Part shown: piece after piece, positions 1,472 through 21,151 of the stretch
How the letters are laid out: each line of letters starts with the position of its first letter
Position numbering within the stretch: the stretch's first letter is position 1
Virus record (IMG/VR): IMGVR_UViG_3300008448_000153
Span: 1-47,521 of that record
Origin: a virus
DNA length: 47,521 nucleotides
Reading direction: 5' to 3' (one strand)
Notes under the pieces: model-generated
What the model saw: only the letters and a program-made list of their open reading frames with translations
The model's database searches: none
Told to the model about the DNA's origin: nothing
Translations under genes and position numbers: made by a program

Positions 1472-3091
1472 ATGGCAACTCCAGTTTTAAACAATGGTAT
1501 ATTCCTACGTGACAACCAGTATCAGACTAGTTCTCATGTGGATTCTTACCACCTCTCTAACCTCCTAAAGTCTGCTGAACCCACTGACCTGGGTCCTGTA
1601 GATCTTTGGGCTATGGCACAGAAGGTAGAAATGCCTCTGTACCAAATGTCTAGTTTTGGTGGAAAGAACGTGATTATGGTTGATAATGCACGTGGTGAAT
1701 ATAAATGGCAGATTCCTGTAGCTCAGGATCTCCCCTACATCGTTGAAGATATTGAACCAGGTAACGAAGCAAAAGGCGTTGATGGTCAAACCTTCAAAAT
1801 TAAATTAAACAAGCGTACTTTTGGTCATGGTGATATTATCACTTATGACAAGTACAATGGTGTTGAAATGTACATCACTCAAGATGACGTAGTTCCTGTT
1901 GGTGATGGTTTCGTTTACACTGTTCAGCTTGTAAACAATGACAATAATAAGTTCTTGGATAACAAGTACTTAACTATTGGTACAAAGGTATTCCGTAAAG
2001 GTTCTGCCCGTGGTGAGTATGGAGAGCGTTTCTCTGACCTGGGTAATGTATCTGCAGGTTTCCGTGAGTTCTACAACTACGTAGGTGGTGCAGAAGCTCA
2101 CGTACACTATTCTATCTCTTCTCGTGCTGACCTGATGATGAAAGGTGGTATGAAAGCTGATGGAACTGTTCCTGTAATTGAACTGTGGAGAAACTTTGAC
2201 AAATCTCTGGACCCTTCAATCACCAACTTGGAAACAATGGCTGAGAAGATGGGTAAGGACTATGTAAAGAAAGCTTACCAGTCTGGTCAACTTTCTCGTT
2301 CTTTCTTAACTACTTTGGAAGCAGCTCACCTGACCAAAATTGCTAATGATATTGAAACCTACCTCATGTGGGGACAGGGTGGACGTATTAGACAAGACGG
2401 TCCAGATGATATTCGTCTGTCTGTAGGTTTGTGGAAGCAGCTTGACAACTCTTACAAGCGTATCTACAACCGTGGTAGCTTTACTTTGGATCTGTTCAAA
2501 TCTGAGATCTTCAACTTCTTCAATGGTCGTGTGGAGTTCAAAGGACCTGATCCTCAGCGTGCTTTGGTTGTTCAAACCGGTTTGGGTGGTATGAAGCTGG
2601 TTAACGAAGCTATCAAGCGTGAAGCTGTTAACTCTGGTTTGGTTCTGAATGCTCATGAACTTGGAGCAGTAACTGGTAAAGGTATGGACCTGAACTTTGG
2701 GTTTGCTTACACCAGCTACATCATCCCGTTCTTGGCTAACGTTAAGTTTGTACTGAATCCTGCATTTGATAACGTACACACTAACGATATTGAGAACCCA
2801 ATTATTGATGGTTTCCCTCTGTCTTCTTACAACTTCATTATCTTTGATATCACTGATAACACTAACGACAATATCTTCTTGCTGAAACTCAGCTGGGATA
2901 ATCAACTGAAGTGGTTCTATCAGAATGGTACTATGGACTACATGGGTCGTACTCAAGGCTTCCAGTCTTCTGGACAATTCAACGGTTATCGTGTGTTCAT
3001 GACTCAAACAATGCCTGCTATCTGGGTTAAAGACCCAACCAAGGTGTTGAAGATTGTTATGAGAAACCCGATCACTGGTGGTTCATTCTAA
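1472..3091 (+). CDS. major capsid protein
   Basis: This 539-aa protein is the probable major capsid protein (HK97-like fold expected for tailed phages). Support is its position right after a scaffold-like gene, its size, and its codon choice, which is distinct from most neighbours: frequent CTG, CGT, AAC, TAC and ACC codons inside an AT-rich genome, as expected for the most abundant virion protein. The sequence is globular, mixed alpha/beta, without Thr runs or coiled coils. It is followed by a strong UUCG hairpin at 3103-3129, consistent with its own transcript end. I identify it from context and general resemblance to capsid proteins of large Bacteroidota phages, not from a diagnostic motif. 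Confidence 0.75.
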   Translation: MATPVLNNGIFLRDNQYQTSSHVDSYHLSNLLKSAEPTDLGPVDLWAMAQKVEMPLYQMSSFGGKNVIMVDNARGEYKWQIPVAQDLPYIVEDIEPGNEAKGVDGQTFKIKLNKRTFGHGDIITYDKYNGVEMYITQDDVVPVGDGFVYTVQLVNNDNNKFLDNKYLTIGTKVFRKGSARGEYGERFSDLGNVSAGFREFYNYVGGAEAHVHYSISSRADLMMKGGMKADGTVPVIELWRNFDKSLDPSITNLETMAEKMGKDYVKKAYQSGQLSRSFLTTLEAAHLTKIANDIETYLMWGQGGRIRQDGPDDIRLSVGLWKQLDNSYKRIYNRGSFTLDLFKSEIFNFFNGRVEFKGPDPQRALVVQTGLGGMKLVNEAIKREAVNSGLVLNAHELGAVTGKGMDLNFGFAYTSYIIPFLANVKFVLNPAFDNVHTNDIENPIIDGFPLSSYNFIIFDITDNTNDNIFLLKLSWDNQLKWFYQNGTMDYMGRTQGFQSSGQFNGYRVFMTQTMPAIWVKDPTKVLKIVMRNPITGGSF

Positions 3092-5792: not shown

Positions 5793-6491
5793 ATGACTAA
5801 TGCTGCTTTACAAATAAAAGTTAAGCAGAGGCTTAATAAATTAGCCTCTTTGGATTATGACAACATTCAATGTTGGCAGATCCAAGAAGCTTTTAATAAA
5901 GCTCAGTATGAGTGGACCAGAAGACAGGTTCGTGGAGTAAACATTAAGAAAGAAGGTGCTGAACAGTCTACAGTGCTTACAGATGATCTTCAAAGATTAA
6001 TGACTCATGTTGGTTTGACTATGACTCCTGGAGATATTTTTGACTCTTCTGCACTTCCTTCTAATTACTTATATTATGTAAGAACAGATGTTTTTGCTAA
6101 AAGTAAGTGTTGTCCTGAAAGAAGAATGACAGTATACGAAGTTGAAGAGTCAAACATTAGTGTTATTTTAAATACTGATGACAAAAAGCCAAGTTTTGAA
6201 TGGGCTGAAACAGTATCTACACTAATGAACAACACTCTTAAGGTGTATACAAATGGTGAGTTTAACATTACCCAGTGTCATCTTATTTACTTTAGAAAAC
6301 CAAGAGAGGTACAGTTTAATGGTTGTGTAGATGTTAGCACTGGTGTAACATTTACTGCTGATCAAACATGTGAGTTTAATGATGATGTTGCAGAAATACT
6401 TGTGGATCAAGCAGTTGCAATTTTAGCAGGTGATATAGCTGACACTTTACAATATCAGAGAGAACAACAAGCAGTACAATCAAATAGTTAA
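5793..6491 (+). CDS. neck/ring-type virion protein
   Basis: This 232-aa protein begins directly after the preceding stop (TAA-ATG). The N-terminal helices include DYDNIQCWQIQEAFNKAQ (21-38) and an EWTRRQVRG segment, a pattern I recognise from conserved structural proteins of crAss-like and related Bacteroidota phages. A cysteine-bearing beta domain occupies the middle (CCPERR near 106) and a helical acidic tail ends it. A role in the neck, as an adaptor between portal and tail, is inferred from family resemblance and position. No catalytic motif is seen. Confidence 0.6.
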   Translation: MTNAALQIKVKQRLNKLASLDYDNIQCWQIQEAFNKAQYEWTRRQVRGVNIKKEGAEQSTVLTDDLQRLMTHVGLTMTPGDIFDSSALPSNYLYYVRTDVFAKSKCCPERRMTVYEVEESNISVILNTDDKKPSFEWAETVSTLMNNTLKVYTNGEFNITQCHLIYFRKPREVQFNGCVDVSTGVTFTADQTCEFNDDVAEILVDQAVAILAGDIADTLQYQREQQAVQSNS

Positions 6492-6493
6492 AA

Positions 6494-7093
6494 ATGGAAA
6501 TCAAAAAAATATCAAGACCTAGTGTTTTAAGTAGTAAAGGACCAGTTAGTACTGAACCTATTAAAACGGGAATTAAAACAGCGTCTACTAAAGGTAAAAA
6601 TCCTTTAATTGATGAATCTTGTATTAGTTTCTTAAACTATCGTGCTCAACAAGAAGATCAATCTTCCCGTATTTATCTATCAATGTCTCTTTGGTTAGAT
6701 AACAATGGGTATGTAAATGCTTCTAAACTTTGGAAGAAATACTCTGATGAAGAAAGAGGACATGCTGATATTGCTCGTACCTATTTATTAAACATGGGTG
6801 TTCAACCTGCAACAGCTTCTTTAGAACAACCTGAAGAAGAGTATGATGGGCTCCCTGAAATTATTAAATTATCTTATCAGCATGAAATTGATATTACTAA
6901 TCAATGTTCTGATTTAGCCACTCATGCTTTAAAAGATGGTTCTCATATGCTGTATGAACTTGCTCTCCATTACTTAAAAGAACAAAATGAAGAGCATGGT
7001 AAAATGCAAAACTGGGTAGATCAGTTAAAAGCATTTGGAGAAGATAAGATTGCTATGAGACTTTTGGATCACGAAATCAAAGACTATTTATAA
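6494..7093 (+). CDS. ferritin-like diiron protein
   Basis: This 199-aa protein has a ~40-residue basic/Ser-rich N-terminal extension followed by a four-helix ferritin-like domain (about 41-180). Helix A carries E54 and Y61, spaced as in bacterial ferritins. Helix B has the SDEERGHA motif with E87 and H90. Helix C contains H130-E131, and helix D has EQNEEH (163-168). Together these could supply all ferroxidase-centre ligands. Ferritins oxidise and store iron. The gene sits two bases after a neck-type gene and 43 bases before an abundant structural gene, so it is likely a virion component or expressed with virions. The extension could be a docking tail. Confidence 0.8.
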   Translation: MEIKKISRPSVLSSKGPVSTEPIKTGIKTASTKGKNPLIDESCISFLNYRAQQEDQSSRIYLSMSLWLDNNGYVNASKLWKKYSDEERGHADIARTYLLNMGVQPATASLEQPEEEYDGLPEIIKLSYQHEIDITNQCSDLATHALKDGSHMLYELALHYLKEQNEEHGKMQNWVDQLKAFGEDKIAMRLLDHEIKDYL

Positions 7094-7136: not shown

Positions 7137-8417
7137 ATGTATTTTAATCATGCGTTTAGAATGACCCTCCTCGGAAAAGATGATGAAGGGTCATTACTTA
7201 GAACAACAACTGGTAGCACAGCAGACCTTATTGCTGGTGAGGTAGGTTTATTTGATGCAAAGACCTATCAAGCTTTTGGTGGCACTAACAATGGTCAACC
7301 GTTCATTCTTGCTCAAGGTAGTTACTTTACCAAAGACAAGATTGGTCCGTTCCATGGTGGTTATCAAGAGTCTGTAAAAACTAAAGTGATCAACCCTAAG
7401 TACATCACTCGTGTATTTACAGCTTGCTCTACCCCTGCTCAAAATCAGATTGATGATGTTTGTGTTTGTAACTTAGAGTGTGGTAAAACCTACAACCTCC
7501 GTTTGGATCTGAAAGGTTCTCCTGCTCTGCGTTTCTTAAGCCACAACATCTACAAAACTTTGGCTGCTTATACTGGTTGCTGCACAGATGACTGTTCTGC
7601 TACCTGTACTGGAGCTTTAGTTGACCCAACTACAGTTATCATTAACTGGGCTAAGCAAATTGCTCAAGATCCATTCTTGCCAAGTTTCATCCACGTTGCT
7701 GTTACAGACTTCAATGGTGATCCTGTTGCTGACCAAGATGATTTTGACACTATTGCTGAGTTTGTAGCTGCATTGGATGCTTACAGTCCTACTCCAGCTT
7801 GGGACCCTGCTGCAACAGATGCAGCTGAACTTCAAGCTTGTTTGACTATTAAGGTTGCTTACATTGACACTAAGTTTGGATATTGCACCTTCACTCCTAC
7901 AGATTTCTACGAACTTCAGCCTTTGAAGCTTCTGGAATCTATGACAGATGAAACTGGTGATCCTTGTAACGTTCAGTGTTTTGAGATTAACCCTGTACAA
8001 ACAGCTGTTCAGGCTCAAGGTGTTGGTGAAACTGTTCTTCGTGAGTTAATTCTTGCAGGACGTTACCGCCAAGAGGCTTATCCTGATAGCTCTCGTGTAG
8101 AAAGTCTTCGTATGAGAGAAATTGAGGCTAACCCTGTGCTGGCTACTGTAGACCGTAATGGTTTCTACAACTCTATTAACATTCTGCACAGTGTTCCTCG
8201 TTTCAACAACCCTACCGGTACATTTGACAATGATCAGTATTTGATCACTCTGTATATTCCGTCTGGTACAAACGGAGATGCTTTGTTGACTCAGATTCAG
8301 GCTATTTTGGATCATTGCTGCCCTGGTTTGGATATTGAACATTTCTCTGCTGATGGAGATTCTGCTTGTATTAATGTTACAACCAGTACTACTACTAGCA
8401 CTACTACTACTGCTTAA
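7137..8417 (+). CDS. abundant structural protein with Thr-rich tail
   Basis: This 426-aa protein uses the same G/C-ending codon preference and the same leader as the capsid gene, so it is probably made in large amounts. The fold appears mixed beta/alpha, with a cysteine cluster at about 105-160 (CVCNLECG, GCCTDDCSATC). The last 12 residues are nearly all Thr/Ser, like the runs in the 15152-18153 proteins. A strong terminator follows. It could be a tail tube or sheath, a capsid decoration protein or a head fibre; the sequence alone does not decide. No enzyme motif is visible. Confidence 0.6.
   Translation: MYFNHAFRMTLLGKDDEGSLLRTTTGSTADLIAGEVGLFDAKTYQAFGGTNNGQPFILAQGSYFTKDKIGPFHGGYQESVKTKVINPKYITRVFTACSTPAQNQIDDVCVCNLECGKTYNLRLDLKGSPALRFLSHNIYKTLAAYTGCCTDDCSATCTGALVDPTTVIINWAKQIAQDPFLPSFIHVAVTDFNGDPVADQDDFDTIAEFVAALDAYSPTPAWDPAATDAAELQACLTIKVAYIDTKFGYCTFTPTDFYELQPLKLLESMTDETGDPCNVQCFEINPVQTAVQAQGVGETVLRELILAGRYRQEAYPDSSRVESLRMREIEANPVLATVDRNGFYNSINILHSVPRFNNPTGTFDNDQYLITLYIPSGTNGDALLTQIQAILDHCCPGLDIEHFSADGDSACINVTTSTTTSTTTTA
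8379..8414 (+). repeat. Thr/Ser codon run at the 3' end of the 7137 gene
   Basis: Twelve codons, ACN mixed with AGT/AGC, encode a Thr/Ser tail. The synonymous codons vary, so selection appears to act on the amino acids and not on a DNA microsatellite. Confidence 0.85.
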
Positions 8418-12075: not shown

Positions 12076-14034
12076 ATGGCACTAGCTAATATTTTAAATA
12101 ATATTCTTACAGACACTGGTGTAGATGTTACATCTTTACAACCATTGTTAACAAACCCAGTAACCGGGACTGGTACTACCAACTACGTACCTAAGTGGAC
12201 AGGTTCAACTGCATTGGGGAACTCATTGCTTACTGATGTCAGCAACGCATTAACTTATGAAGCATCATCAGGCAATGCTGCGTTCAATCTTAAAAGTCCT
12301 TCAGGTTATTACTATCCAGCAATTAGTCTCTTTTCTAATGGTGCATTTTCAGGTTCATTATATTCTTATCTGAGTAGAATGTACTTGACTGCAAATGGTG
12401 GTGGATTATGGTTCGGTAATGCTACTACTACGCAAATGGTTCTAACTAATAGTGGGCGAGTTCTCATCGGAACAACTACCGAATCTACTTATGAGTTAGA
12501 CGTAGTGGGAGATATCCGTTCTACCTTAGATGCCAACATAAACGGATTGACAGTAGGTAAAGGAGGTGGAAACAATGCTAACAATACCGCTTTTGGAGTT
12601 AGTGCTTTAGGTTCAAATACAACAGGCACTCAAAATGTTGCAATCGGAGTCAATGCATTAGGGAATAACACTACTGCAAATTTCAACGTAGCAATTGGAT
12701 TTCAGGCTGGTCAGTTAATCACACAGAATAGCAATACTGCGGTCGGTTACTATGCTGGCTATGCAAACAATACTGGCTATGAAAATACCGCTATCGGTTC
12801 ACTATCTCAAAGGTTTTGTGCGAGTGGATATCAAAACACAACTGTTGGTGTAAATTCGGGATACGGAATTACATCGGGAAATAGGAATACATTTTTTGGA
12901 ACTAATTCAGGTTATGACATTACTACGGGAACATTTAACACGATGGTTGGTTCGGGGGCAGCAGGTAACGGAATTACCACAGGCTCATTCAACACAATCA
13001 TAGGTTCTCAAGTTTCTGGTCTATCCTCTTCCCTCTCCAATACAATCATATTAGCAGATGGACAAGGGAATCAGAGGTTGTATATTAACTCAAGCGGTAA
13101 CGTAGGAATTGGTAGCACAAACCCAGCCTCAAAACTCACATTGAATCAAGCCGCAACAGGTGAACAAAAAATATCTTTCACACTTACAGGAACTGAATAC
13201 GGTTATTTTTTAGTAAATACATCAGCTGGAAGCGTACAATTAGGATCTGCAACTTATGCAGCACAATATTATGGAACTTCACACAGTTTCAATAATACTA
13301 TTAACTTAAATACTACAACATTTACTGGACAAAATCCCAAAATAAACATTGCTGGATATGGATCAATATACGTGAATTGGGATAGTCCTTCATTAAATAT
13401 AGAATCTTCAAGTAATACGCTTTATTCAATACGTTTTAACACAGCTGGAGGAACGGAGCGTATGCGAATTTTTGGAGCAACCGGAAACTTAGCCATCGGC
13501 ACAACCACAGATGGGGGGGAAAAGCTTCAAGTCAACGGAACTGCGAGAGTGAGTGGGAATTTTACAGTCAGTGGGCCAAGTGGAAGTGTGACAAATCTTG
13601 ATATTTTTGGAGGCACTACTGGTGGAAGCGGTCAGACTTTAAGAATATACGGTTCAACACCAACTACGCAAGGTTTGTTTTTGACTTACACAACCGCAAC
13701 GGCTGAAAGTTTTATAGATGCTGGGTATCACACAACATCAAGCGGAGCGTCATTTGGTGATATCATATTTCGCAGCAAAAAGAATGCAACGAATACACTT
13801 GCTGAGAATATGCGTATTCGTGGATTTGATGGAAATGTTTTGATAGGGACATCAACTAACGATGCAAGTGCAATCGTAAACATCTCAAGCACCACAAAAG
13901 GTTTCCTACCTCCGAGACAAACTCAAGCACAACGCACCGCCATAACTTCCCCTGCGGTTGGTTTGATTGTATATCAAACGGATGCGACTGAAGGTTTGTA
14001 TATTTACACCTCAACAGGATGGGTTCAATTATGA
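12076..14034 (+). CDS. second large fibre, paralogous architecture, GC-shifted
   Basis: This 652-aa protein starts one base after the previous stop. It has an N-terminal segment with TGTGTTNYVPKWTGS, around ten YadA-like repeats (about 170-325), a GNVGIG-TNP segment typical of phage fibres, and the same C-terminal QAQRTAITSPAVGL-VYQTD ending as the gene upstream. It appears to be a paralogue or alternative receptor-binding fibre. Base composition is visibly richer in G+C than its neighbours: hand counts of 60-base lines gave 25/60 at 12541 and 31/60 at 13501, against 21/60 at 10921. The endonuclease start overlaps its stop. Confidence 0.75.
   Translation: MALANILNNILTDTGVDVTSLQPLLTNPVTGTGTTNYVPKWTGSTALGNSLLTDVSNALTYEASSGNAAFNLKSPSGYYYPAISLFSNGAFSGSLYSYLSRMYLTANGGGLWFGNATTTQMVLTNSGRVLIGTTTESTYELDVVGDIRSTLDANINGLTVGKGGGNNANNTAFGVSALGSNTTGTQNVAIGVNALGNNTTANFNVAIGFQAGQLITQNSNTAVGYYAGYANNTGYENTAIGSLSQRFCASGYQNTTVGVNSGYGITSGNRNTFFGTNSGYDITTGTFNTMVGSGAAGNGITTGSFNTIIGSQVSGLSSSLSNTIILADGQGNQRLYINSSGNVGIGSTNPASKLTLNQAATGEQKISFTLTGTEYGYFLVNTSAGSVQLGSATYAAQYYGTSHSFNNTINLNTTTFTGQNPKINIAGYGSIYVNWDSPSLNIESSSNTLYSIRFNTAGGTERMRIFGATGNLAIGTTTDGGEKLQVNGTARVSGNFTVSGPSGSVTNLDIFGGTTGGSGQTLRIYGSTPTTQGLFLTYTTATAESFIDAGYHTTSSGASFGDIIFRSKKNATNTLAENMRIRGFDGNVLIGTSTNDASAIVNISSTTKGFLPPRQTQAQRTAITSPAVGLIVYQTDATEGLYIYTSTGWVQL
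12583..13050 (+). repeat. YadA-like repeats in the second fibre
   Basis: About ten units of ~16 residues have the pattern N-[TV]-[AFM]-[IVF]-G followed by a Ser/Gly/Thr-rich turn. The array has roughly twice as many units as in the upstream fibre. Confidence 0.75.
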
Positions 14035-14591
14035 TAGGGATATATAAAATAACATTTTCAAACGGTCATTATTATTATGGTCAAGCCATTAATATAAATA
14101 GACGTTTTTCTCAACATAAAAGAGAATTAAAGAAAGGACTTCATACAAATAGTAGGATGCAAAATTGCTACAAAAAATATGGTGATCCTGTTTATGAAAT
14201 TGTTATTGAATGTAAAAAAGAAGAATTAAATAAAATAGAATCAGAACTTTTATTTAAGCATATTGATAATCCTATGTGTTGCAATATGTGTAGAGAAGGA
14301 AGAAGTGCTAAAGGAATAAAAAGAACTAAGGAGTTTAATAAAAAGATAAGTGATTATCAAAGATTAATAGGGAAGGTGAAGCCTGTATATATGTTTAGCA
14401 GAGATAATATGGATATGCTCGCAAAATATGATACAATTCGTGATGCAGAAAAAGCTATTAATGCTGGACAAAAAGAAGTACAAAAATCTTGTAAATCAAA
14501 TGGTAAATATAATGTTAGAGGTTACAAGTTTATGTATGCTCAGCCTATTGATAATTTATTAAATCATATTTCTAAAATCGTAAAATTCTAA
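14031..14591 (+). CDS. GIY-YIG homing endonuclease
   Basis: This 186-aa protein opens MIGIYKITF and continues to YYYGQA, the two halves of the GIY-YIG nuclease motif. R22 in the NRRFSQHK segment is the expected catalytic Arg position, and an acidic residue follows in the ELNKIESELL helix. The C-terminal third (about 115-175) with YDTIRDAEKAI looks like a NUMOD1-type DNA-binding repeat. The start at 14031 overlaps the previous stop (ATGA) and gives the family's usual N-terminus; an ATG at 14019 is in frame but less likely. Free-standing genes of this type cut related genomes and drive their own spread. Confidence 0.85.
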   Translation: MIGIYKITFSNGHYYYGQAININRRFSQHKRELKKGLHTNSRMQNCYKKYGDPVYEIVIECKKEELNKIESELLFKHIDNPMCCNMCREGRSAKGIKRTKEFNKKISDYQRLIGKVKPVYMFSRDNMDMLAKYDTIRDAEKAINAGQKEVQKSCKSNGKYNVRGYKFMYAQPIDNLLNHISKIVKF

Positions 14592-15151: not shown

Positions 15152-16378
15152 ATGAATCCTGTTAGATCTAGCAGTAACAGTGAAAACTGTGTTCCTATTT
15201 CGTCAAACTGTGTGGTTTGGCAGGGACCAGATTTACCGTGTTTACACCTCTGCAAAGGTGATAGTGTATCTGATGTAGTATACAAGGTTGCCGTTGAAAT
15301 TTGTAATTTTAAAACAGACCTAGGATTATCTGATGTAGACATTCAATGTTTGCTTACAGTATGTGAAACTACTCCAGAACCACAGATTACTTTAGCTAAT
15401 ATTTTACAACTTCTTGTAGATAAGGTGTGCTGTTTATCTGACCTTATAAATAATAATCCAACTCCAGACGGATGTTGTTATACAGAACCTATTCTTACTT
15501 TACCAGAGTGTTTATATGTACCAGATGGCGTAGGTGGGTTTATTACAGAACTTTCTCTTAGTGAATATGCACAAAGAGCTGCTTTTGTTCTTTGTCAAAT
15601 TAATTCTATTGTTACAGATCACACTGCTGAATTAGCTAATCATGAAGCTAGAATTACAGCATTAGAAAATGCAACAACTCCTGCACTTTCTGTATACAGT
15701 TGTTTATCAGGTTCTGTGCAGGATATTCAAACTGTTGTAGAAGATGTGGCTAATGCATTGTGTAGTTATATCAGTGCATTAGGTACTGTATCAGATTTAA
15801 CAATTGCTCAGGCTAGACAATGTATTACAGGAGCAGATGCTTCTTTAAGTACAGCAGGTACAATGTCCTCTCTTCCTGGATGGAATAATACTGTAAATAA
15901 TCTTGGACAGTCTATTCAAAATCTTTGGATTACAGTTTGTGATATTAGAGATGCTGTAGAGCAATTAAAGAATTGTTGTGCTGTAGATTGTACTCAGTTT
16001 ATCTTAGGATTTAATGCAGCACAAGATCCTACAAGACAGTTAATTACATTAACATTTAATGCTCTTACAACTATTCCTTCTGGATTTAGCAACTGCCCTT
16101 TACTTTCTACTGTAACAATTACAGATGGTGCTGGACATATTTATTCTAACACGTTTGATCTTGTAACCGAAGCAACTGATCCTTCTGGAATTACATTTGA
16201 TATTAGTACAGCTGGATTTGATACATCAACAGCTTATAGTATTACAGTAGATGGTTGTATTACAAAAGATGGTTACACTTGTCAAAATACTGCTACAGGT
16301 GGGTTAGCTGCTCCAACTACCACAACTACTACGACAACTACTAGCACCACTACCAGTACAACTACTACACCTCCTTAA
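15152..16378 (+). CDS. Cys-containing fibre/structural protein with Thr-rich tail
   Basis: This 408-aa protein carries near its N-terminus (about 18-45) the motif C-V-x-W-x-G-x-x-L-P-C...KGDSVSDVV, related to segments in the next two genes. The middle is helical (about 150-290, with a heptad-like HEARITALENA stretch suited to trimerisation). A beta domain follows at about 290-385, and the last ~20 residues are Thr/Ser ending in PP. It is probably a fibre or baseplate appendage. The Thr tail is a candidate O-glycosylation site, given the glycosyltransferases downstream. Family otherwise unknown. Confidence 0.6.
   Translation: MNPVRSSSNSENCVPISSNCVVWQGPDLPCLHLCKGDSVSDVVYKVAVEICNFKTDLGLSDVDIQCLLTVCETTPEPQITLANILQLLVDKVCCLSDLINNNPTPDGCCYTEPILTLPECLYVPDGVGGFITELSLSEYAQRAAFVLCQINSIVTDHTAELANHEARITALENATTPALSVYSCLSGSVQDIQTVVEDVANALCSYISALGTVSDLTIAQARQCITGADASLSTAGTMSSLPGWNNTVNNLGQSIQNLWITVCDIRDAVEQLKNCCAVDCTQFILGFNAAQDPTRQLITLTFNALTTIPSGFSNCPLLSTVTITDGAGHIYSNTFDLVTEATDPSGITFDISTAGFDTSTAYSITVDGCITKDGYTCQNTATGGLAAPTTTTTTTTTSTTTSTTTTPP
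16316..16369 (+). repeat. Thr/Ser codon run ending the 15152 gene
   Basis: Eighteen codons, all ACN, AGC or AGT, encode a Thr/Ser tail before a final Pro-Pro. Codons are mixed (ACT, ACC, ACA, ACG), arguing for protein-level selection. Confidence 0.85.
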
Positions 16379-16388
16379 TCAATAGTTA

Positions 16389-17849
16389 ATGTCTTGTAAC
16401 TGTAATACAGCTTCTAGGACTTGTGATCCTTGCATGTTTTGTACCCCTCCGGGAGTTACAGGGCTTACTACATGTCAACCTGTAGATCCTTGTGAGGAAA
16501 AGATTGACGCTTGCTGTGTTTTATATTCTGGAGAAACAAATCCTTGTTTACCAGTAACTAAAGGAGATAAGCTTTGTGAGGTGTTACATGATTTAGTAGT
16601 AGCTTATTTTGGTGAAAATTGCACTACAACTACTACAACCAGTACCACAAGTACAACAACTACTGCACCTCCTACTACCACTACAACTACGACACTAGCT
16701 CCTTGTGTTTGCTATACATATGTTGTACAAAATATTACAGGTTATATTCAGTATATAGGTTATAATAACTGCAATAGAGTTTTTCAATCGGGTGTTCCTG
16801 TACCAGCAAATTCTCAAATTACAATTTGTGTTTGCAACAATGAGATTTATTATAACAGCAAATCTATAATTGTATTTCAAGGAGGAACTGGTTGTAATAC
16901 TACAACAACTACTTCTACAACTACTAGCACTAGTACTACTAGTACTACCAGTACTACAACCACTAGTACAACTACCACTACCACTACAGTTAATCCTTGT
17001 TCTAATTGTAGAGACTATGAGATCTTTAATCTTAGTGGAGGATCTGTAAGTGGAACATATCGTCAATGTGTAACGGGAACGGTTATTCCCATTACGTTAT
17101 TAAATGGTCAAAGTACAGCAGTTTGTGCATGTCAGAATTCAGTTTCTATTATTCCTGTTCCAGGCTTAACAATTATCGATGAAGGTTTCTGTGGAACAAC
17201 TACAACTAGTACTACCACTACAGAACCTCCTTGTGTCTGTTATCAAATTGGTTGGGTGGGATCAGCTACAAACTATCTTTCTTATACAAACTGCTATGGT
17301 GAGGGAGTAGTTACTGTAAATACGCCTGAAGTTTCTTTACCACTTTATATTTGTGCAATACAGGGAACTGTACTTGCTACAGGTCTTTCTGTAGCAAATG
17401 TTTCTTCTGAACTATGTGCAAGTGATTGTATAACAACAACTTCTACAACAACTACTAGTACCACTTCTGCTCCTGCTGAATGTGCAACATATGATGTAAC
17501 AGGAGGAACAGGTGGTGGTTCTTGGTCAGCACAATTATGTGGTGGAACTGCTGAACCTATTGCTGGTATCGTAGCTCAAGGAGTTACCATAGATACAGGA
17601 TGTATTGTTGTTGGCTCACTAGTTTTAACAAATGCATCATCTGCTAATGAAGCAATGTGTACTACACCTTGTGTAGAATATACGTTGCAAACAGACGGTA
17701 GCCTTGCATCTATTGAATACTTTCAATGTGGAGGATCTTATACCACTGTAAGTTTCTTAACAACTATTACAATTTGTACTGACGGTACAGGATATACAGT
17801 TACTTCTGGTAATGTAACTTTAAATAATACAACTACTTGCGGACTTTAA
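16389..17849 (+). CDS. mucin-like multi-domain protein: Cys domains joined by Thr/Ser linkers
   Basis: This 486-aa protein has a Cys-rich head (1-78, including CCVLYSG and KGDKLCEVL, shared with both neighbours). Thr/Ser linkers at 79-102, 171-200, 270-278 and 349-360 separate about five similar ~60-65-residue beta domains, each with a Tyr, then a Cys, then a C-x-C or single-Cys strand (C-V-C-Y at 106, CRDYEIFN near 206, CVCY near 282, CATYDVTGG near 366, C-V-E-Y near 430). The architecture resembles an extended glycosylated stalk. It lies ten bases after a related gene and upstream of glycosyltransferases. A role in host or mucus binding is inferred. Confidence 0.65.
   Translation: MSCNCNTASRTCDPCMFCTPPGVTGLTTCQPVDPCEEKIDACCVLYSGETNPCLPVTKGDKLCEVLHDLVVAYFGENCTTTTTTSTTSTTTTAPPTTTTTTTLAPCVCYTYVVQNITGYIQYIGYNNCNRVFQSGVPVPANSQITICVCNNEIYYNSKSIIVFQGGTGCNTTTTTSTTTSTSTTSTTSTTTTSTTTTTTTVNPCSNCRDYEIFNLSGGSVSGTYRQCVTGTVIPITLLNGQSTAVCACQNSVSIIPVPGLTIIDEGFCGTTTTSTTTTEPPCVCYQIGWVGSATNYLSYTNCYGEGVVTVNTPEVSLPLYICAIQGTVLATGLSVANVSSELCASDCITTTSTTTTSTTSAPAECATYDVTGGTGGGSWSAQLCGGTAEPIAGIVAQGVTIDTGCIVVGSLVLTNASSANEAMCTTPCVEYTLQTDGSLASIEYFQCGGSYTTVSFLTTITICTDGTGYTVTSGNVTLNNTTTCGL
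16623..17468 (+). repeat. four Thr/Ser-rich linker runs
   Basis: Runs of ACN and AGT/AGC/TCT codons lie at 16623-16694, 16899-16988, 17196-17222 and 17433-17468. The longest encodes 30 residues, nearly all Thr or Ser. They alternate with folded domains, so they act as spacers. Confidence 0.85.
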
Positions 17850-17862
17850 AAAAATTATAAAA

Positions 17863-18153
17863 ATGTCTTGTTGCTGCAATAATTATATGTATGGTTTACC
17901 TTGCTGTTGTCCTGAGACAATAACAACCAGTACTACAACAACTACTACCACCTGTGAAGGAGCAGAACCTTGTGATGCTGCTTATCAATCTGATTGTGTA
18001 ATTTATACAGGATCAGATTTAGCATGCTACGGTATTATAGCAGGTATGTCAGTGACAGAGATTATTGAAATTTTAATTGCTCAACTTCCTCAATGTACAA
18101 CAACAACTACTACTACGACTAGTAGTACAACAACAACTACTACTCTCCCTTAA
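17863..18153 (+). CDS. short Cys/Thr-rich protein sharing the head motif
   Basis: This 96-aa protein has an N-terminal cluster of cysteines (MSCCCNN, CCCPE), a Thr run at 19-30, a head motif at about 41-76 (CVIYTGSDLACYGI, then MSVTEIIEIL), and a terminal Thr/Ser run. The head motif aligns with those of the two preceding genes, so it looks like a minimal paralogue lacking the repeat domains. It is the last structural gene before the glycosyltransferases. It could be a decoy, a cap or a glycosylation acceptor. Confidence 0.6.
   Translation: MSCCCNNYMYGLPCCCPETITTSTTTTTTTCEGAEPCDAAYQSDCVIYTGSDLACYGIIAGMSVTEIIEILIAQLPQCTTTTTTTTSSTTTTTTLP
17917..18144 (+). repeat. two Thr/Ser codon runs in the 17863 gene
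   Basis: Runs lie at 17917-17952 and 18097-18144. Both are almost pure ACN with a few AGT and one ATA codon. Confidence 0.85.
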
Positions 18154-18181: not shown

Positions 18182-19102
18182 ATGAAGTTTATTTGTGCAC
18201 AACCTGCTACAATAGATTATTATACCTGGCAGGTAGAGGTAATGATTAATAACTTTATCAAAAACGGAGTCAATCCTAATGATATTATTATATTAGGAGC
18301 AATTAATAATGACTTTATTCCTGAAAAGTGGAAAAGGTTAGCCGCTCATTATAATAATGTACAGTTTCATTTTTATAATGATAAACGTGTAAAACCTTCA
18401 TATATATCTAGTGTAAGATTAGACCTTCTTTATCAGCATTGGTTAAAGTATCCTGAGATGGAAAAAGAAACCATCTTTTATCATGACTGTGATATTGTAT
18501 TTACAAAATCTGTAGATTTTGATGTTTTTTTAAATGACGAGATCTGCTACGTAAGTGACACAGTTTCTTACATTGGAGCTGAATATATTGCTTCAAAAGG
18601 AGAACACTATCTTGATCTTATGTCAAGAATAGTAAACGTAAATAAAAAATTCATAAGATTAAATCAAGCAGATAGTGGTGGAGCACAGTATCTTTTAAAA
18701 AATGTTCCCACTGAGCTTTGGAAAAAAGCTTACTATGATGCTGAAAGTCTTTATAGAATAGTGAATCATCAAATTAGAGAAGATAAACCAGAACACCCAA
18801 TACAAATTTGGTGTGCAGATATGTGGGCTGTTTTATGGAATCTTTGGTTCTTTGACAAAATTGTAAAGGTGTCTACTAAGTTATCATTTGCTTGGGCTAC
18901 CTCCCATGTCAATGAATGGGATAAACATTTAATCTATCATAATGCTGGTGTAGTAGATGGAAATCAGGGTATGTTTTTTAAAGGACAATATCAGCAAGCA
19001 CTTCCTTATGATATTAAGTTAGAAGACTTTAAGACAGATAAGTGTTCTATTAAATATGCAGAAGAAATATTAAAAACCAAGGAGGTAACATGTCTGAGAT
19101 AA
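18182..19102 (+). CDS. GT-A-type glycosyltransferase-like protein
   Basis: This 306-aa protein starts three bases after AAAACCAACA (18170-18179). FYHDCDIVF (99-107) provides a DxD motif (D102, D104), the metal/nucleotide-sugar site of GT-A enzymes, after a beta-alpha start (NDIIILGAINND). Later Trp-rich segments (WCADMWAVLWNLW) and a terminal HNAGV motif suggest an acceptor pocket. It would transfer a sugar from a nucleotide donor. Given its position right after Thr-rich virion proteins, the acceptor may be those Thr/Ser runs, but host surface glycan or DNA are alternatives. Its 3' end contains the ribosome-binding site of the next gene. Confidence 0.7.
   Translation: MKFICAQPATIDYYTWQVEVMINNFIKNGVNPNDIIILGAINNDFIPEKWKRLAAHYNNVQFHFYNDKRVKPSYISSVRLDLLYQHWLKYPEMEKETIFYHDCDIVFTKSVDFDVFLNDEICYVSDTVSYIGAEYIASKGEHYLDLMSRIVNVNKKFIRLNQADSGGAQYLLKNVPTELWKKAYYDAESLYRIVNHQIREDKPEHPIQIWCADMWAVLWNLWFFDKIVKVSTKLSFAWATSHVNEWDKHLIYHNAGVVDGNQGMFFKGQYQQALPYDIKLEDFKTDKCSIKYAEEILKTKEVTCLR
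19079..19086 (+). promoter_or_regulatory. canonical Shine-Dalgarno sequence
   Basis: AAGGAGGT lies three bases upstream of the ATG at 19090, inside the end of the previous gene. It is the clearest Shine-Dalgarno site I noticed in the window; most other starts rely on A-rich leaders. Confidence 0.7.
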
Positions 19103-19866
19103 GTTATCCTTTGATATCTGCAAAATGTATAACATATGGGCGTGTAGATACGCTTGAAGAAAGTTTATACTCTTTTATTAATCAAGACTATCCTGGAAAA
19201 AAAGAATTAATTATTGTAAATGATTATCCTCTTCAGGAACTTGTATTTGATCATCCAGATGTAAAAATCTATAATCTAAAAGAAACTTTTTCTACAATTG
19301 GAGAAAAAGAAAACTTTGCAATTAGTAAATGTTCTGGTGATATAATTGCTGTTTGGGATGACGATGATGTTGCTTTACCTAATCATTTGAGTAATATTGC
19401 AAAATACTTTAAAGAAGATACAGATCTTCTTCATTGGCATAGGGGTGTATTTTTTAACAATAAGGAAATTACTTCAATTACAGGATTAGGTAATTCTGGA
19501 ATTGTTTATAGTAAAAGAATATGGAAAAAGCTTGGTGGGCACCCTTTAGAAAATGCTGGTTATGATATGACATTTGTTATGAGTATTAGACACAACTCAC
19601 AAAATGTTGTATTTGCTGCTCCTTCCGATGATGAAGTAAGTTGGTTTTATATGTGGGGAGGAAGATCTTATCATATGAGTGGACAAGGAACAGATGATAA
19701 TAAAAGACCAAATGTTATAGTGAGACATAGTGAACATATAGAGTCTTTAAGAAAAAATGGTAAAATTCCAACAGGACGCATAGAGCTTAAACCAAAGTGG
19801 AAAGTCGATTATAAACAACAGTTAATTGATTTTAATGGAAAAAATAAAAGCTCTAATCGTAAATAG
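19090..19866 (+). CDS. family 2-type glycosyltransferase
   Basis: This 258-aa protein has the classic GT2 layout: an N-terminal strand with ITYGRVDTLEESLYSF (14-29), ELIIVND (39-45), GEKENFAISKCSGD (71-84), then the WDDDD metal site (89-93) and ALPNHL. A C-terminal region with GGRSYHMSGQGTDD may close the active site. The reaction is transfer of a nucleotide-activated sugar to an acceptor. It overlaps the previous gene by 13 bases and the next by 32, so the three enzymes form one coupled unit. A Shine-Dalgarno sequence precedes it. The stop is TAG. Confidence 0.85.
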   Translation: MSEISYPLISAKCITYGRVDTLEESLYSFINQDYPGKKELIIVNDYPLQELVFDHPDVKIYNLKETFSTIGEKENFAISKCSGDIIAVWDDDDVALPNHLSNIAKYFKEDTDLLHWHRGVFFNNKEITSITGLGNSGIVYSKRIWKKLGGHPLENAGYDMTFVMSIRHNSQNVVFAAPSDDEVSWFYMWGGRSYHMSGQGTDDNKRPNVIVRHSEHIESLRKNGKIPTGRIELKPKWKVDYKQQLIDFNGKNKSSNRK

Positions 19867-21151
19867 AAATCTTCTAACCACTTTAAAAAACACAATAGAG
19901 TTTTTAAAAAAAGAAGATAGAGTTGAAATATGGGTACTTGATCAAGAATCAACCTACCCACCTTTGTTAGAATATTATAAAACAAATCCTTGTAATATAT
20001 TTTATTCTAAAAACGAAGGACCTAATTCATGCTGGAACGGTAGATACAATAAGATTAAAGGAAGTGAACCCTTTATAGTAGCAGATTCAGATTGTATATA
20101 TGATGGAGTTCCTTCTGATTGGTTAGATAAAATGCTTGAAGCATTAGATAAATCTGGTAAAAATAAAGTTGGTTTTTCTTTAAGAATTGATAATTTACCA
20201 GATAGTAAAATAGGTAAACAAGCAAGACTACATGAGTCTAAATATTGGGTAAATAAAACTAAGTATGGTTGGGATGCTGATGTAGATACAACATTTGCAT
20301 TATATAAAGCCAAATCTGGTTTTTCTTATAGTGCTCTTAGATTGGATGAACCTTACACAATAAAACATGTTCCATGGTATTTAGATGAAAATAGTTTAAC
20401 AGATGAGTGGAGGTACTACTTAAAAGAAGCTGTTTCATTTTCAACCTGGGGAGATAAAATAAAGAAGTTATATATGGATGATATAAAAAAGATGAATAAA
20501 AGTGGAGTGAGTTTTGATGTAATAAAAACTTCTTTAAATTCTAAGTTTTGGGATGATCATTATTCAGGTTGGGAAAATTCAACATTTGATTTTATAGTTC
20601 CAAGATTAAGTAAAGAAAAAACATTTATTGATATAGGAACTTGGATTGGCCCAATATCACTAGTTGCTTGTCAATACTCTAAACAATGTATCTGTTTTGA
20701 ACCAGATCCTGTAGCATTTAAAGAACTTTCTCGTAATGTACAGTTAAATGAGTTTAAGAATATTTGTTTAGAAAATAAAGCTGTCTCTTCAAAAAGTCAA
20801 ATAACACTTGGATCGGGAGTTCTTGGTGAGAGTATAACTAGAGATTCTTGTATAGATAATGCAATTACAGTTGACTGTTTAACAGTTAAACAAATTTTAG
20901 AAAAATACAGTCTTAAACAAGAAGACATATCTGTTATAAAGATTGATATAGAAGGACATGAACAAGACTTGTTGAAAGAACATTCTATACTTTGGGATTT
21001 AAATATACCAATGTATATATCATTCCATCCTGGTTGGAGAATAGACAAGGATAAATATTTTAAAGATATTATTCCTTTTTTATTATATAAAAAAATAGAT
21101 GTAGCTAATATTCAAAATAGAGGTAACTTTTTTGATATAGCTGTAAAATAA
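19835..21151 (+). CDS. glycosyltransferase-FkbM methyltransferase fusion
   Basis: This 438-aa protein starts at ATG inside the previous gene; the TTG nine bases earlier is less likely. Residues 1-~200 form a GT-A-like domain with KALIVNRNLLTTLKNTIEF and a D84-S-D86 site. Residues ~248-438 form a FkbM-type SAM-dependent methyltransferase with FIDIGTWIG (264-272), CFEPDP (287-292), KIDIEGHE (369-376) and a final FFDIAVK strand. FkbM enzymes O-methylate sugars or polyketides. Fusion to a glycosyltransferase suggests transfer and methyl-capping of the same glycan. It ends the glycosylation operon before a strong terminator. Confidence 0.8.
   Translation: MEKIKALIVNRNLLTTLKNTIEFLKKEDRVEIWVLDQESTYPPLLEYYKTNPCNIFYSKNEGPNSCWNGRYNKIKGSEPFIVADSDCIYDGVPSDWLDKMLEALDKSGKNKVGFSLRIDNLPDSKIGKQARLHESKYWVNKTKYGWDADVDTTFALYKAKSGFSYSALRLDEPYTIKHVPWYLDENSLTDEWRYYLKEAVSFSTWGDKIKKLYMDDIKKMNKSGVSFDVIKTSLNSKFWDDHYSGWENSTFDFIVPRLSKEKTFIDIGTWIGPISLVACQYSKQCICFEPDPVAFKELSRNVQLNEFKNICLENKAVSSKSQITLGSGVLGESITRDSCIDNAITVDCLTVKQILEKYSLKQEDISVIKIDIEGHEQDLLKEHSILWDLNIPMYISFHPGWRIDKDKYFKDIIPFLLYKKIDVANIQNRGNFFDIAVK

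What the first reader, a model, noticed from the sequence alone, without database searches (positions are those of the whole stretch)
6494..7093. Ferritin-like protein encoded within the capsid/neck operon
E54, Y61, E87, H90, E131 and E163-E167 fit the ferroxidase pattern of bacterial ferritins. The gene is packed between neck and abundant structural genes and has an extra ~40-residue N-terminal tail. Possible roles are iron carried in virions for receptor mimicry (iron-uptake systems as entry points), protection of DNA from oxidative damage, or a structural reuse of the four-helix fold.
Basis: partly seen in the sequence, partly recalled or inferred. Interest (0 to 1): 0.75.

Follow-up and report, generated by a model that had tools for sequence, protein, structure and literature searches.

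The report
Swappable iron cage with shared tag
A crAss-like phage carries a working-looking bacterial ferritin (an iron-storage cage) among its particle-building genes; its relatives repeatedly swap it for a different iron cage (Dps-type) in exactly the same place while keeping the same short N-terminal tag, which suggests the tag attaches an iron-detoxifying cage to the virus particle or its assembly site.

Summary
ORF 6494-7093 encodes a genuine non-heme (FtnA-type) ferritin: Pfam Ferritin 2.8e-19; AlphaFold model over V. cholerae ferritin at Z 23.3, 1.3 A, 162 residues. The diiron residues are intact and, with one deviation at E86, invariant in 62 distinct crAss-like phage homologues; body dN/dS is about 0.07-0.23. 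The gene sits between a tail-barrel ring-protein gene and the next virion-module gene.

The larger finding lies outside the given coordinates. In related contigs anchored on the ring gene, the same slot holds a Dps-type mini-ferritin (72 of 99), this ferritin (12), both (1), nothing (13) or another gene (1). On the ring tree the two types interchange at least 14 times. Near-identical phages differ almost only in this slot. Yet both cage types share a short N-terminal tag (K-[IL]-x-R-P / LKR). Other genes' N-termini, ferritins outside the slot (all but one of ten), cellular ferritins and T4-like/Kuttervirus Dps proteins lack it.

Best reading: an iron/ROS-detoxifying cage, interchangeable in type, carried on a conserved N-terminal docking tag resembling T4 capsid-targeting sequences. 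Catalytic competence and tag-plus-swap are well supported by sequence; packaging into virions is inferred. Receptor mimicry has no support; inert structural reuse is contradicted.

The parts
6494..7093 (+). FtnA-type ferritin gene, 199 aa
6494..6607 (+). N-terminal tail (residues 1-38): disordered, basic, absent from cellular relatives
   Evidence: residues 1-24 pLDDT <50; nearest Flavobacteriaceae ferritins have only a short leader before the domain
6506..6520 (+). Shared tag core K5-I6-S7-R8-P9 (family pattern [KR]-x(0-2)-[IL]-x-[RK]-[P/N/D])
   Evidence: shared with Dps-type occupants of the same slot; several codons used per residue
6608..7090 (+). Ferritin body (residues 39-199): four-helix bundle plus short C-terminal E helix; ligands E54, Y61, E86, E87, H90, E131, E163, Q164, E166, E167
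   Evidence: model helices H41-70, 74-100, 120-148, 151-181, 185-198; ligand conservation
5793..6491 (+). Ring (tail-barrel) protein, left border of the slot
   Evidence: profile top PDB hit PhiCrAss001 gp34 E 0.0059; homologue annotated 'ring protein' in csAssE-Sib; phrog_15924 / phrog_29507
7137..8417 (+). Right border of the slot: conserved Cys-containing virion-module protein with Thr-rich C-terminus, function not assigned
   Evidence: syntenic in nearly all relatives; phrog_15060 unknown function; no PDB sequence match
1472..3091 (+). Major capsid protein (Crass_capsid PF23898), identifies the phage as crAss-like
   Evidence: E 4.5e-32, phrog_11589 6.3e-33

Best explanation
The gene makes a catalytically competent FtnA-type ferritin, probably a 24-subunit cage, that is co-expressed with the ring protein late in infection. 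It removes Fe(II) and the oxidants that react with it, at the site of particle assembly or in the particle. The body was most likely acquired from Bacteroidota-type cellular ferritins. What is specific to the slot is a short basic N-terminal tag in front of the body, which would be displayed on the outside of the cage and act as a docking or targeting peptide for a virion or prohead component, in the manner of the T4 capsid-targeting sequence. Because the tag does the docking, the phages can exchange the cage behind it (FtnA-type for Dps-type) and have done so many times. Shown: intact and conserved ferroxidase residues, conserved position, repeated interchange with a Dps-type protein, shared tag on both bodies. 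Inferred: cage assembly, late expression, docking, packaging, and the protective purpose.
For: Fold and site; all ligands invariant in 62 distinct phage ferritins except E86 (61/62), and H48, H60, D75, E79 (Dps H51, H63, D78, E82) invariant in 105 Dps-type occupants. Body dN/dS 0.07-0.23 where computable. Slot census on ring-anchored contigs: 72 Dps, 12 ferritin, 1 both, 13 empty, 1 other; 53/9/1/7/1 after clustering at 95% ring identity. Dps identity of the alternative: phrog_858 up to 4.6e-26, DUF5856, profile to Dps/NAP structures 1.6e-6. Interchange: 21 parsimony changes on the ring tree, at least 14 forced by well-supported branches. Mutual exclusion in large contigs: 0 Dps in 15 ferritin phages, 0 ferritin in 18 others (positive controls in 78, 82). 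Swap seen in DNA: L088/L243 are 83-89% identical across flanks on both sides, but the slot body differs; in L039/L275, L261/L159, L072/L263 and L058/L160 identity runs 27-31 nt into the ORF, stops, and resumes at or shortly after the stop codon. Shared tag: mean best score of ferritin tails to Dps tails 34.5, against 14.0-22.5 to N-termini of other genes and at most 25.8 for shuffled tails; not leftover DNA, because the motif uses several codons and in L088/L243 the tags differ in DNA but keep [IL]LKR. Negative controls without the tag: 9 of 10 out-of-slot ferritins, cellular ferritins, T4-like and Kuttervirus Dps. The CTS precedent (first 10 residues suffice, bodies diverge) is PMC9026906. 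Dps or ferritin-like proteins have been detected in other phage preparations: Privateer (PMC7881722), SU10 (PMC4281155), Sajous1 (PMC10892097).
Against: No proteomic, structural or biochemical data were found for any phage of this clade, so virion association is unproven. Tag similarity correlates with ring similarity (rho 0.38), which linkage and recombination next to the ring gene would also produce. Nine of the ten examined ferritins elsewhere in virion modules do without the tag, so the tag is not needed in every crAss-like phage. A Lys/Arg-rich N-terminus could instead bind DNA, as in Dps. Some contigs have an empty slot (13 of 99), so the cage is dispensable.
Confidence: 0.5

Rival explanations
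1. Host-cell helper: the cage acts only in the infected cell as a late-expressed auxiliary gene that stores iron and limits Fenton damage while DNA is replicated and packaged. The basic tail keeps it near DNA, or reflects no specific partner, and it is not part of the virion.
For: Phage Dps and catalase genes have been interpreted this way (PMC8008677). The tails are basic (mean net charge +3.7 for ferritin, +2.1 for Dps), and T4-like and Kuttervirus Dps-type genes lie outside virion modules.
Against: It does not explain the fixed position behind the ring gene, nor why a specific short motif is shared by two different bodies and missing from their out-of-slot relatives. Generic DNA binding would not need the [IL]-x-[RK] core.
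Confidence: 0.33
2. Recombination by-product: the shared N-terminus is only the conserved start of the slot, used as a homology arm when cassettes are exchanged next to the ring gene. The peptide has no function of its own.
For: DNA identity runs 27-31 nt into the ORF in several swap pairs; tag similarity follows ring identity.
Against: The motif persists at the amino-acid level with different codons, in pairs whose tags are not DNA-homologous (L088/L243), and FER-DPS tag similarity stays above shuffled values even at ring identity under 50% (14.5 vs 12.0). N-termini of neighbouring genes show nothing comparable.
Confidence: 0.1
3. Receptor mimicry: the virion displays iron-loaded ferritin to enter through iron-uptake systems (the 'Ferrojan horse' idea).
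For: A ferritin-like protein was reported in the Kuttervirus Sajous1 proteome and interpreted so (PMC10892097).
Against: Same study: TonB- and FeoB-deficient hosts were infected with similar efficiency. Bacterial uptake systems recognise siderophores, heme and similar ligands, not ferritin cages (general knowledge). Interchange with Dps gives no obvious shared receptor.
Confidence: 0.04
4. Inert structural reuse of the four-helix bundle as a capsid or neck part.
For: Position in the virion operon.
Against: Metal ligands invariant in 62 homologues; the slot can be empty (13 of 99) or filled by a differently built protein.
Confidence: 0.03

Closest known systems
Bacterial non-heme ferritin FtnA (V. 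cholerae 3qz3, E. coli 1eum, Flavobacteriaceae ferritins)
   Same: Fold, five helices including the E helix, complete diiron and third-site ligand set; cellular Flavobacteriaceae relatives are 43-48% identical.
   Different: Adds an N-terminal tail (mean about 35 residues) with a conserved tag; lies in a phage virion operon.
Phage Dps-type proteins, PF19174 DUF5856 / phrog_858 (T4-like rI.-1, Kuttervirus)
   Same: The alternative occupant of the same slot belongs to this family and keeps the Dps-type metal ligands (Asp67 position mostly Asn or Gly).
   Different: The T4-like and Kuttervirus members examined lack the tag and lie outside virion modules.
T4 capsid-targeting sequence (internal proteins IPI-IPIII)
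   Same: Short N-terminal peptide, about 10 residues, shared by proteins with diverged bodies.
   Different: Unrelated sequence; protease cleavage and delivery into the head are known for T4 and untested here.
Encapsulin-ferritin cargo systems
   Same: A ferritin-superfamily cargo carrying a short peptide that docks to an HK97-fold shell; proposed for this phage by analogy only.
   Different: Encapsulin tags are mostly C-terminal and the typical cargo is the two-helix EncFtn; here the tag is N-terminal on a full FtnA body.
PhiCrAss001 cargo proteins (gp45, gp46, RNA polymerase subunits)
   Same: Proteins carried inside the virion of a crassvirus (PMC10172136).
   Different: The passages read report no ferritin or Dps there; the ring genes in the named outgroups examined (L126-L128) have no recognised ferritin-superfamily neighbour.

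Membership tests
FtnA-type bacterial ferritin | Sequence homology to Ferritin family PF00210 | tested here: met
   E 2.8e-19, 69.9 bits over cut-off 24.5
FtnA-type bacterial ferritin | Four-helix bundle plus C-terminal E helix | tested here: met
   Predicted helices and Z 23.3 to 3qz3; a prediction, not an experiment
FtnA-type bacterial ferritin | Ferroxidase ligands E17, E50, H53, E94, E130, Y24 and third-site E49, E126, E129 (E. coli numbering) | tested here: met
   E54, E87, H90, E131, E167, Y61, E86, E163, E166 present; invariant in 62 homologues except E86 61/62. E. coli numbering from general knowledge
FtnA-type bacterial ferritin | 24-mer assembly and iron mineral core | not testable with these tools
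   needs the purified protein
Dps mini-ferritin (window protein) | Dps-type sequence with ligands in the H..H..D..E pattern and no E helix | tested here: not met
   Window protein matches FtnA, carries an E helix and FtnA-type ligands
Dps-type / PF19174 (alternative slot occupant) | Homology and Dps-type metal ligands | tested here: met
   phrog_858 up to 4.6e-26, PF19174, Dps structures 1.6e-6, four ligands invariant in 105; D67 position mostly N/G
Dps-type / PF19174 (alternative slot occupant) | Dps fold | tested here: inconclusive
   Model pLDDT 79.8; best Z 13.4 to Dps-like PA4880, at the level where helical bundles can match by arrangement
Encapsulin cargo ferritin (EncFtn) | Two-helix subunit with C-terminal targeting peptide | tested here: not met
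   Full four-helix subunit, N-terminal tail
T4-type capsid-targeting sequence | Short N-terminal peptide shared by proteins with different bodies | tested here: met
T4-type capsid-targeting sequence | Directs the protein into the head; removed by the prohead protease | not testable with these tools
   no virion data for this clade
Order Crassvirales (the phage) | Crass-type major capsid protein and ring-type virion genes | tested here: met
   PF23898 4.5e-32; ring homologue; family rank not tested

The most novel reading that the evidence does not exclude
These phages run a modular 'tagged iron-cage' system: a conserved N-terminal docking peptide loads an interchangeable ferritin-superfamily cage (FtnA or Dps) onto or into the crAss-like virion, so particles carry their own iron/peroxide detoxifier, a phage counterpart of encapsulin cargo loading.
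Probability: 0.4. Interest if true: 0.87.

Novelty: new variant of a known kind. Interest (0 to 1): 0.72.

Why it matters
Ferritin-like genes in phages are usually treated as scattered auxiliary genes. Here one fixed position in the virion operon is filled, in most of the related phages sampled, by one of two different iron cages behind the same short tag, with at least 14 interchanges. That points to a selected, probably particle-linked need for iron or peroxide control in environmental crAss-like phages, gives a concrete candidate for a cargo-docking peptide in Crassvirales, and gives a function to two families labelled otherwise (phrog_16594 'unknown function'; DUF5856/phrog_858 'transcriptional regulator'). 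It turns a loose idea (iron in virions) into specific tests.

Tried and rejected
Reverse-strand reading: full of stops. Inert structural reuse: rejected on ligand invariance. Ferrojan horse: no support. Classification of the window protein as Dps or EncFtn: not met. Host-family search through the genome tool was not possible (virus record has no relatives), so the cellular origin rests on one genome-contig scan. Sequence search found no solved structure for the right-hand neighbour 7137-8417. The tag was sought on other genes of these phages: only isolated matches, the most notable being L019 6442-7239 (MLKRIPRPGYFG), not a general cargo tag. Literature searches for ferritin or Dps in crAss-like phages found no paper describing this arrangement in the library held; subscription journals are mostly absent. 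The motif pattern used for counting was chosen after seeing the tails; the alignment-score comparison was not. Foldseek alone gave no significant match for the Dps-type model (best E 0.015). I suspected that Sajous1 gp217 is a member of the same Dps-type family as the Kuttervirus genes found, but could not confirm that it is the same gene.

Full report
WHAT IS THERE. The ORF at 6494-7093 (+) is real and 199 aa long. It matches Pfam Ferritin at 2.8e-19, V. cholerae ferritin 3qz3 at 1.3e-18 over residues 39-195, and its AlphaFold model (mean pLDDT 82.8, built on 19 homologues) superposes on 3qz3 with Z 23.3, rmsd 1.3 A over 162 residues. The model has the four long helices and the short fifth helix of 24-subunit ferritins. 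Residues 1-24 have pLDDT below 50. The contig is from a crAss-like phage: the gene at 1472-3091 is a Crass_capsid major capsid protein (4.5e-32), and the gene just upstream of the ferritin is a ring (tail-barrel) protein (weak PDB profile hit to PhiCrAss001 gp34, E 0.0059; a homologue is annotated 'ring protein' in csAssE-Sib). The ferritin ATG follows the ring stop by 2 nt.

IS IT AN ACTIVE FERRITIN? The ligands E54, Y61, E87, H90, E131, E163, Q164, E166 and E167 are invariant in 62 distinct crAss-like phage homologues; E86 is kept in 61. Pairwise body dN/dS, where it could be computed, is 0.07-0.23. This is what selection on a working ferroxidase centre looks like, and it argues against reuse of the fold as a mere building block. 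Activity itself is not shown.

WHERE IT OCCURS. Scans of IMG/VR gave 28 close relatives with the single protein and 153 confirmed with the alignment, of which the best 80 were kept. In most, the gene order capsid, (338-aa gene), ring, ferritin, next virion gene is the same. In a few phages the ferritin lies elsewhere but still around the late module: after the presumed portal gene (L019, L091), in tandem with a Dps-type gene between portal and head genes (L055), after or near the muzzle gene (L024, L027), upstream of the presumed terminase gene (L051, L084, L086, L087), or between very large genes (L029) (portal and terminase there are assigned by size and order). The nearest cellular sequences found are Flavobacteriaceae ferritins at 43-48% identity with no tail; L279, binned as Tissierellales, looks like a phage contig.

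THE SLOT IS SHARED WITH A SECOND CAGE. Anchoring on the ring gene instead of the ferritin, 99 loci with an uncut slot held: Dps-type 72, ferritin 12, ferritin plus Dps 1, empty 13, other 1; clustered at 95% ring identity: 53, 9, 1, 7, 1. The ring scan keeps only the best-scoring loci, so these are proportions in the window's neighbourhood, not in all crAss-like phages. The Dps-type proteins belong to PF19174/DUF5856 and phrog_858, match Dps structures by profile at 1.6e-6, and keep four Dps ligands in 105 of 105 (the Asp67 position is mostly Asn or Gly). Their predicted fold is compatible with Dps (Z 13.4) but that value alone would not prove it. In three more distant named phages the slot holds no recognised cage: in Fpv4 and csAssE-Sib the next structural-size gene follows the ring directly, and in cr50_1 other annotated genes do. 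On a tree of the ring proteins the two types change 21 times by parsimony, at least 14 of them forced by well-supported branches (FastTree, so branch support is approximate). In 15 large ferritin-bearing contigs there is no Dps-type match, and in 18 large Dps-type or empty-slot contigs no ferritin match; the same queries do find their targets in control contigs. Tandem carriers exist (L007, L071, L081, L055), so exclusion is a tendency.

THE SHARED TAG. The first 16 residues of slot ferritins resemble those of slot Dps-type proteins: MQKIARPTIFSTKG against MQKLSRPSIFSSKP, MEKPRILKRPE against MEKPRMLKRNPE, MAEQPRNLLKRE against MAEAPRNLLKRD. The mean best local alignment score of ferritin to Dps tails is 34.5; to N-termini of ten profiled neighbouring gene families and all other ORFs it is 14.0-22.5; with shuffled Dps tails at most 25.8 in 40 shuffles. 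A motif pattern chosen after inspection occurs in 44 of 56 ferritin and 96 of 105 Dps tails, and in 45 of 1372 control N-termini. Ferritins outside the slot (one exception, L024, in ten), cellular ferritins, and the T4-like and Kuttervirus Dps-type proteins lack it. Tail similarity between ferritin and Dps carriers follows ring similarity (rho 0.38, none of 2000 permutations as high).

HOW THE SWAP HAPPENS. L088 (ferritin) and L243 (Dps) are 83-89% identical in DNA on both flanks over several kilobases and differ in the slot body (with a few smaller differences upstream). In L039/L275, L261/L159, L072/L263 and L058/L160 the identity runs 27-31 nt into the ORF, stops, and resumes close to the stop codon. 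So the body can be exchanged behind a retained start. The tag is not simply leftover DNA: its residues use several synonymous codons, and in L088/L243 the two tags are not alignable as DNA yet both read R-[IL]-LKR-[PN].

MECHANISM. Most likely a tagged iron cage: the body oxidises and stores Fe(II) and so limits Fenton chemistry; the tag, which by analogy with solved ferritins and Dps would lie on the outside of the cage, docks it to a component of the assembling or finished particle. T4 capsid-targeting sequences provide a proven precedent for a 10-residue N-terminal peptide shared by proteins with divergent bodies (PMC9026906); encapsulins provide one for ferritin cargo in an HK97-type shell (PMC11202242). 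Dps or ferritin-like proteins were found by mass spectrometry in preparations of Privateer, SU10 and Sajous1, so presence in or with particles is plausible. The PhiCrAss001 tail barrel has constrictions under 50 A (PMC10172136), so an intact ferritin cage (about 12 nm, general knowledge) could not be ejected through such a tail; if packaged inside it would stay behind or have to come apart (inference). The main rival is a host-cell helper with a basic tail and no particle role.

LIMITS. Everything here is sequence and prediction. No cultured member of this clade, and no analysis of its virions, appeared in the sources I could reach. The literature library is partial.

Noticed in passing
window 15152-18153 and 18182-21151: Several putative tail/fibre proteins (also 7137-8417) carry long Thr/Ser runs, and right downstream lie a GT2 glycosyltransferase (19090-19866), a GT2-FkbM methyltransferase fusion (19826-21151) and a further unassigned gene: possibly a cassette that glycosylates the virion.
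   Followed up: partly
window 14019-14591: GIY-YIG endonuclease gene inserted between fibre-like genes, likely a homing endonuclease.
   Followed up: no
L019 6442-7239: In a phage whose ferritin follows the presumed portal gene, the gene before the ring starts MLKRIPRPGYFG, resembling the slot tag; the tag may sit on another protein there.
   Followed up: no
phrog_16594; PF19174 / phrog_858: phrog_16594 ('unknown function') is an FtnA-type ferritin family; phrog_858 ('starvation-inducible transcriptional regulator') and DUF5856 are Dps-type metal proteins.
   Followed up: yes
L279: Contig binned as a Tissierellales MAG carries a crAss-type ferritin plus phage-like fibre and glycosyltransferase genes; probably a phage contig.
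   Followed up: partly
L125 8795-9268: The slot in this phage holds an unrelated 157-aa protein (no Pfam or PHROG match), while its ferritin sits after the muzzle gene on the same contig (L024).
   Followed up: partly
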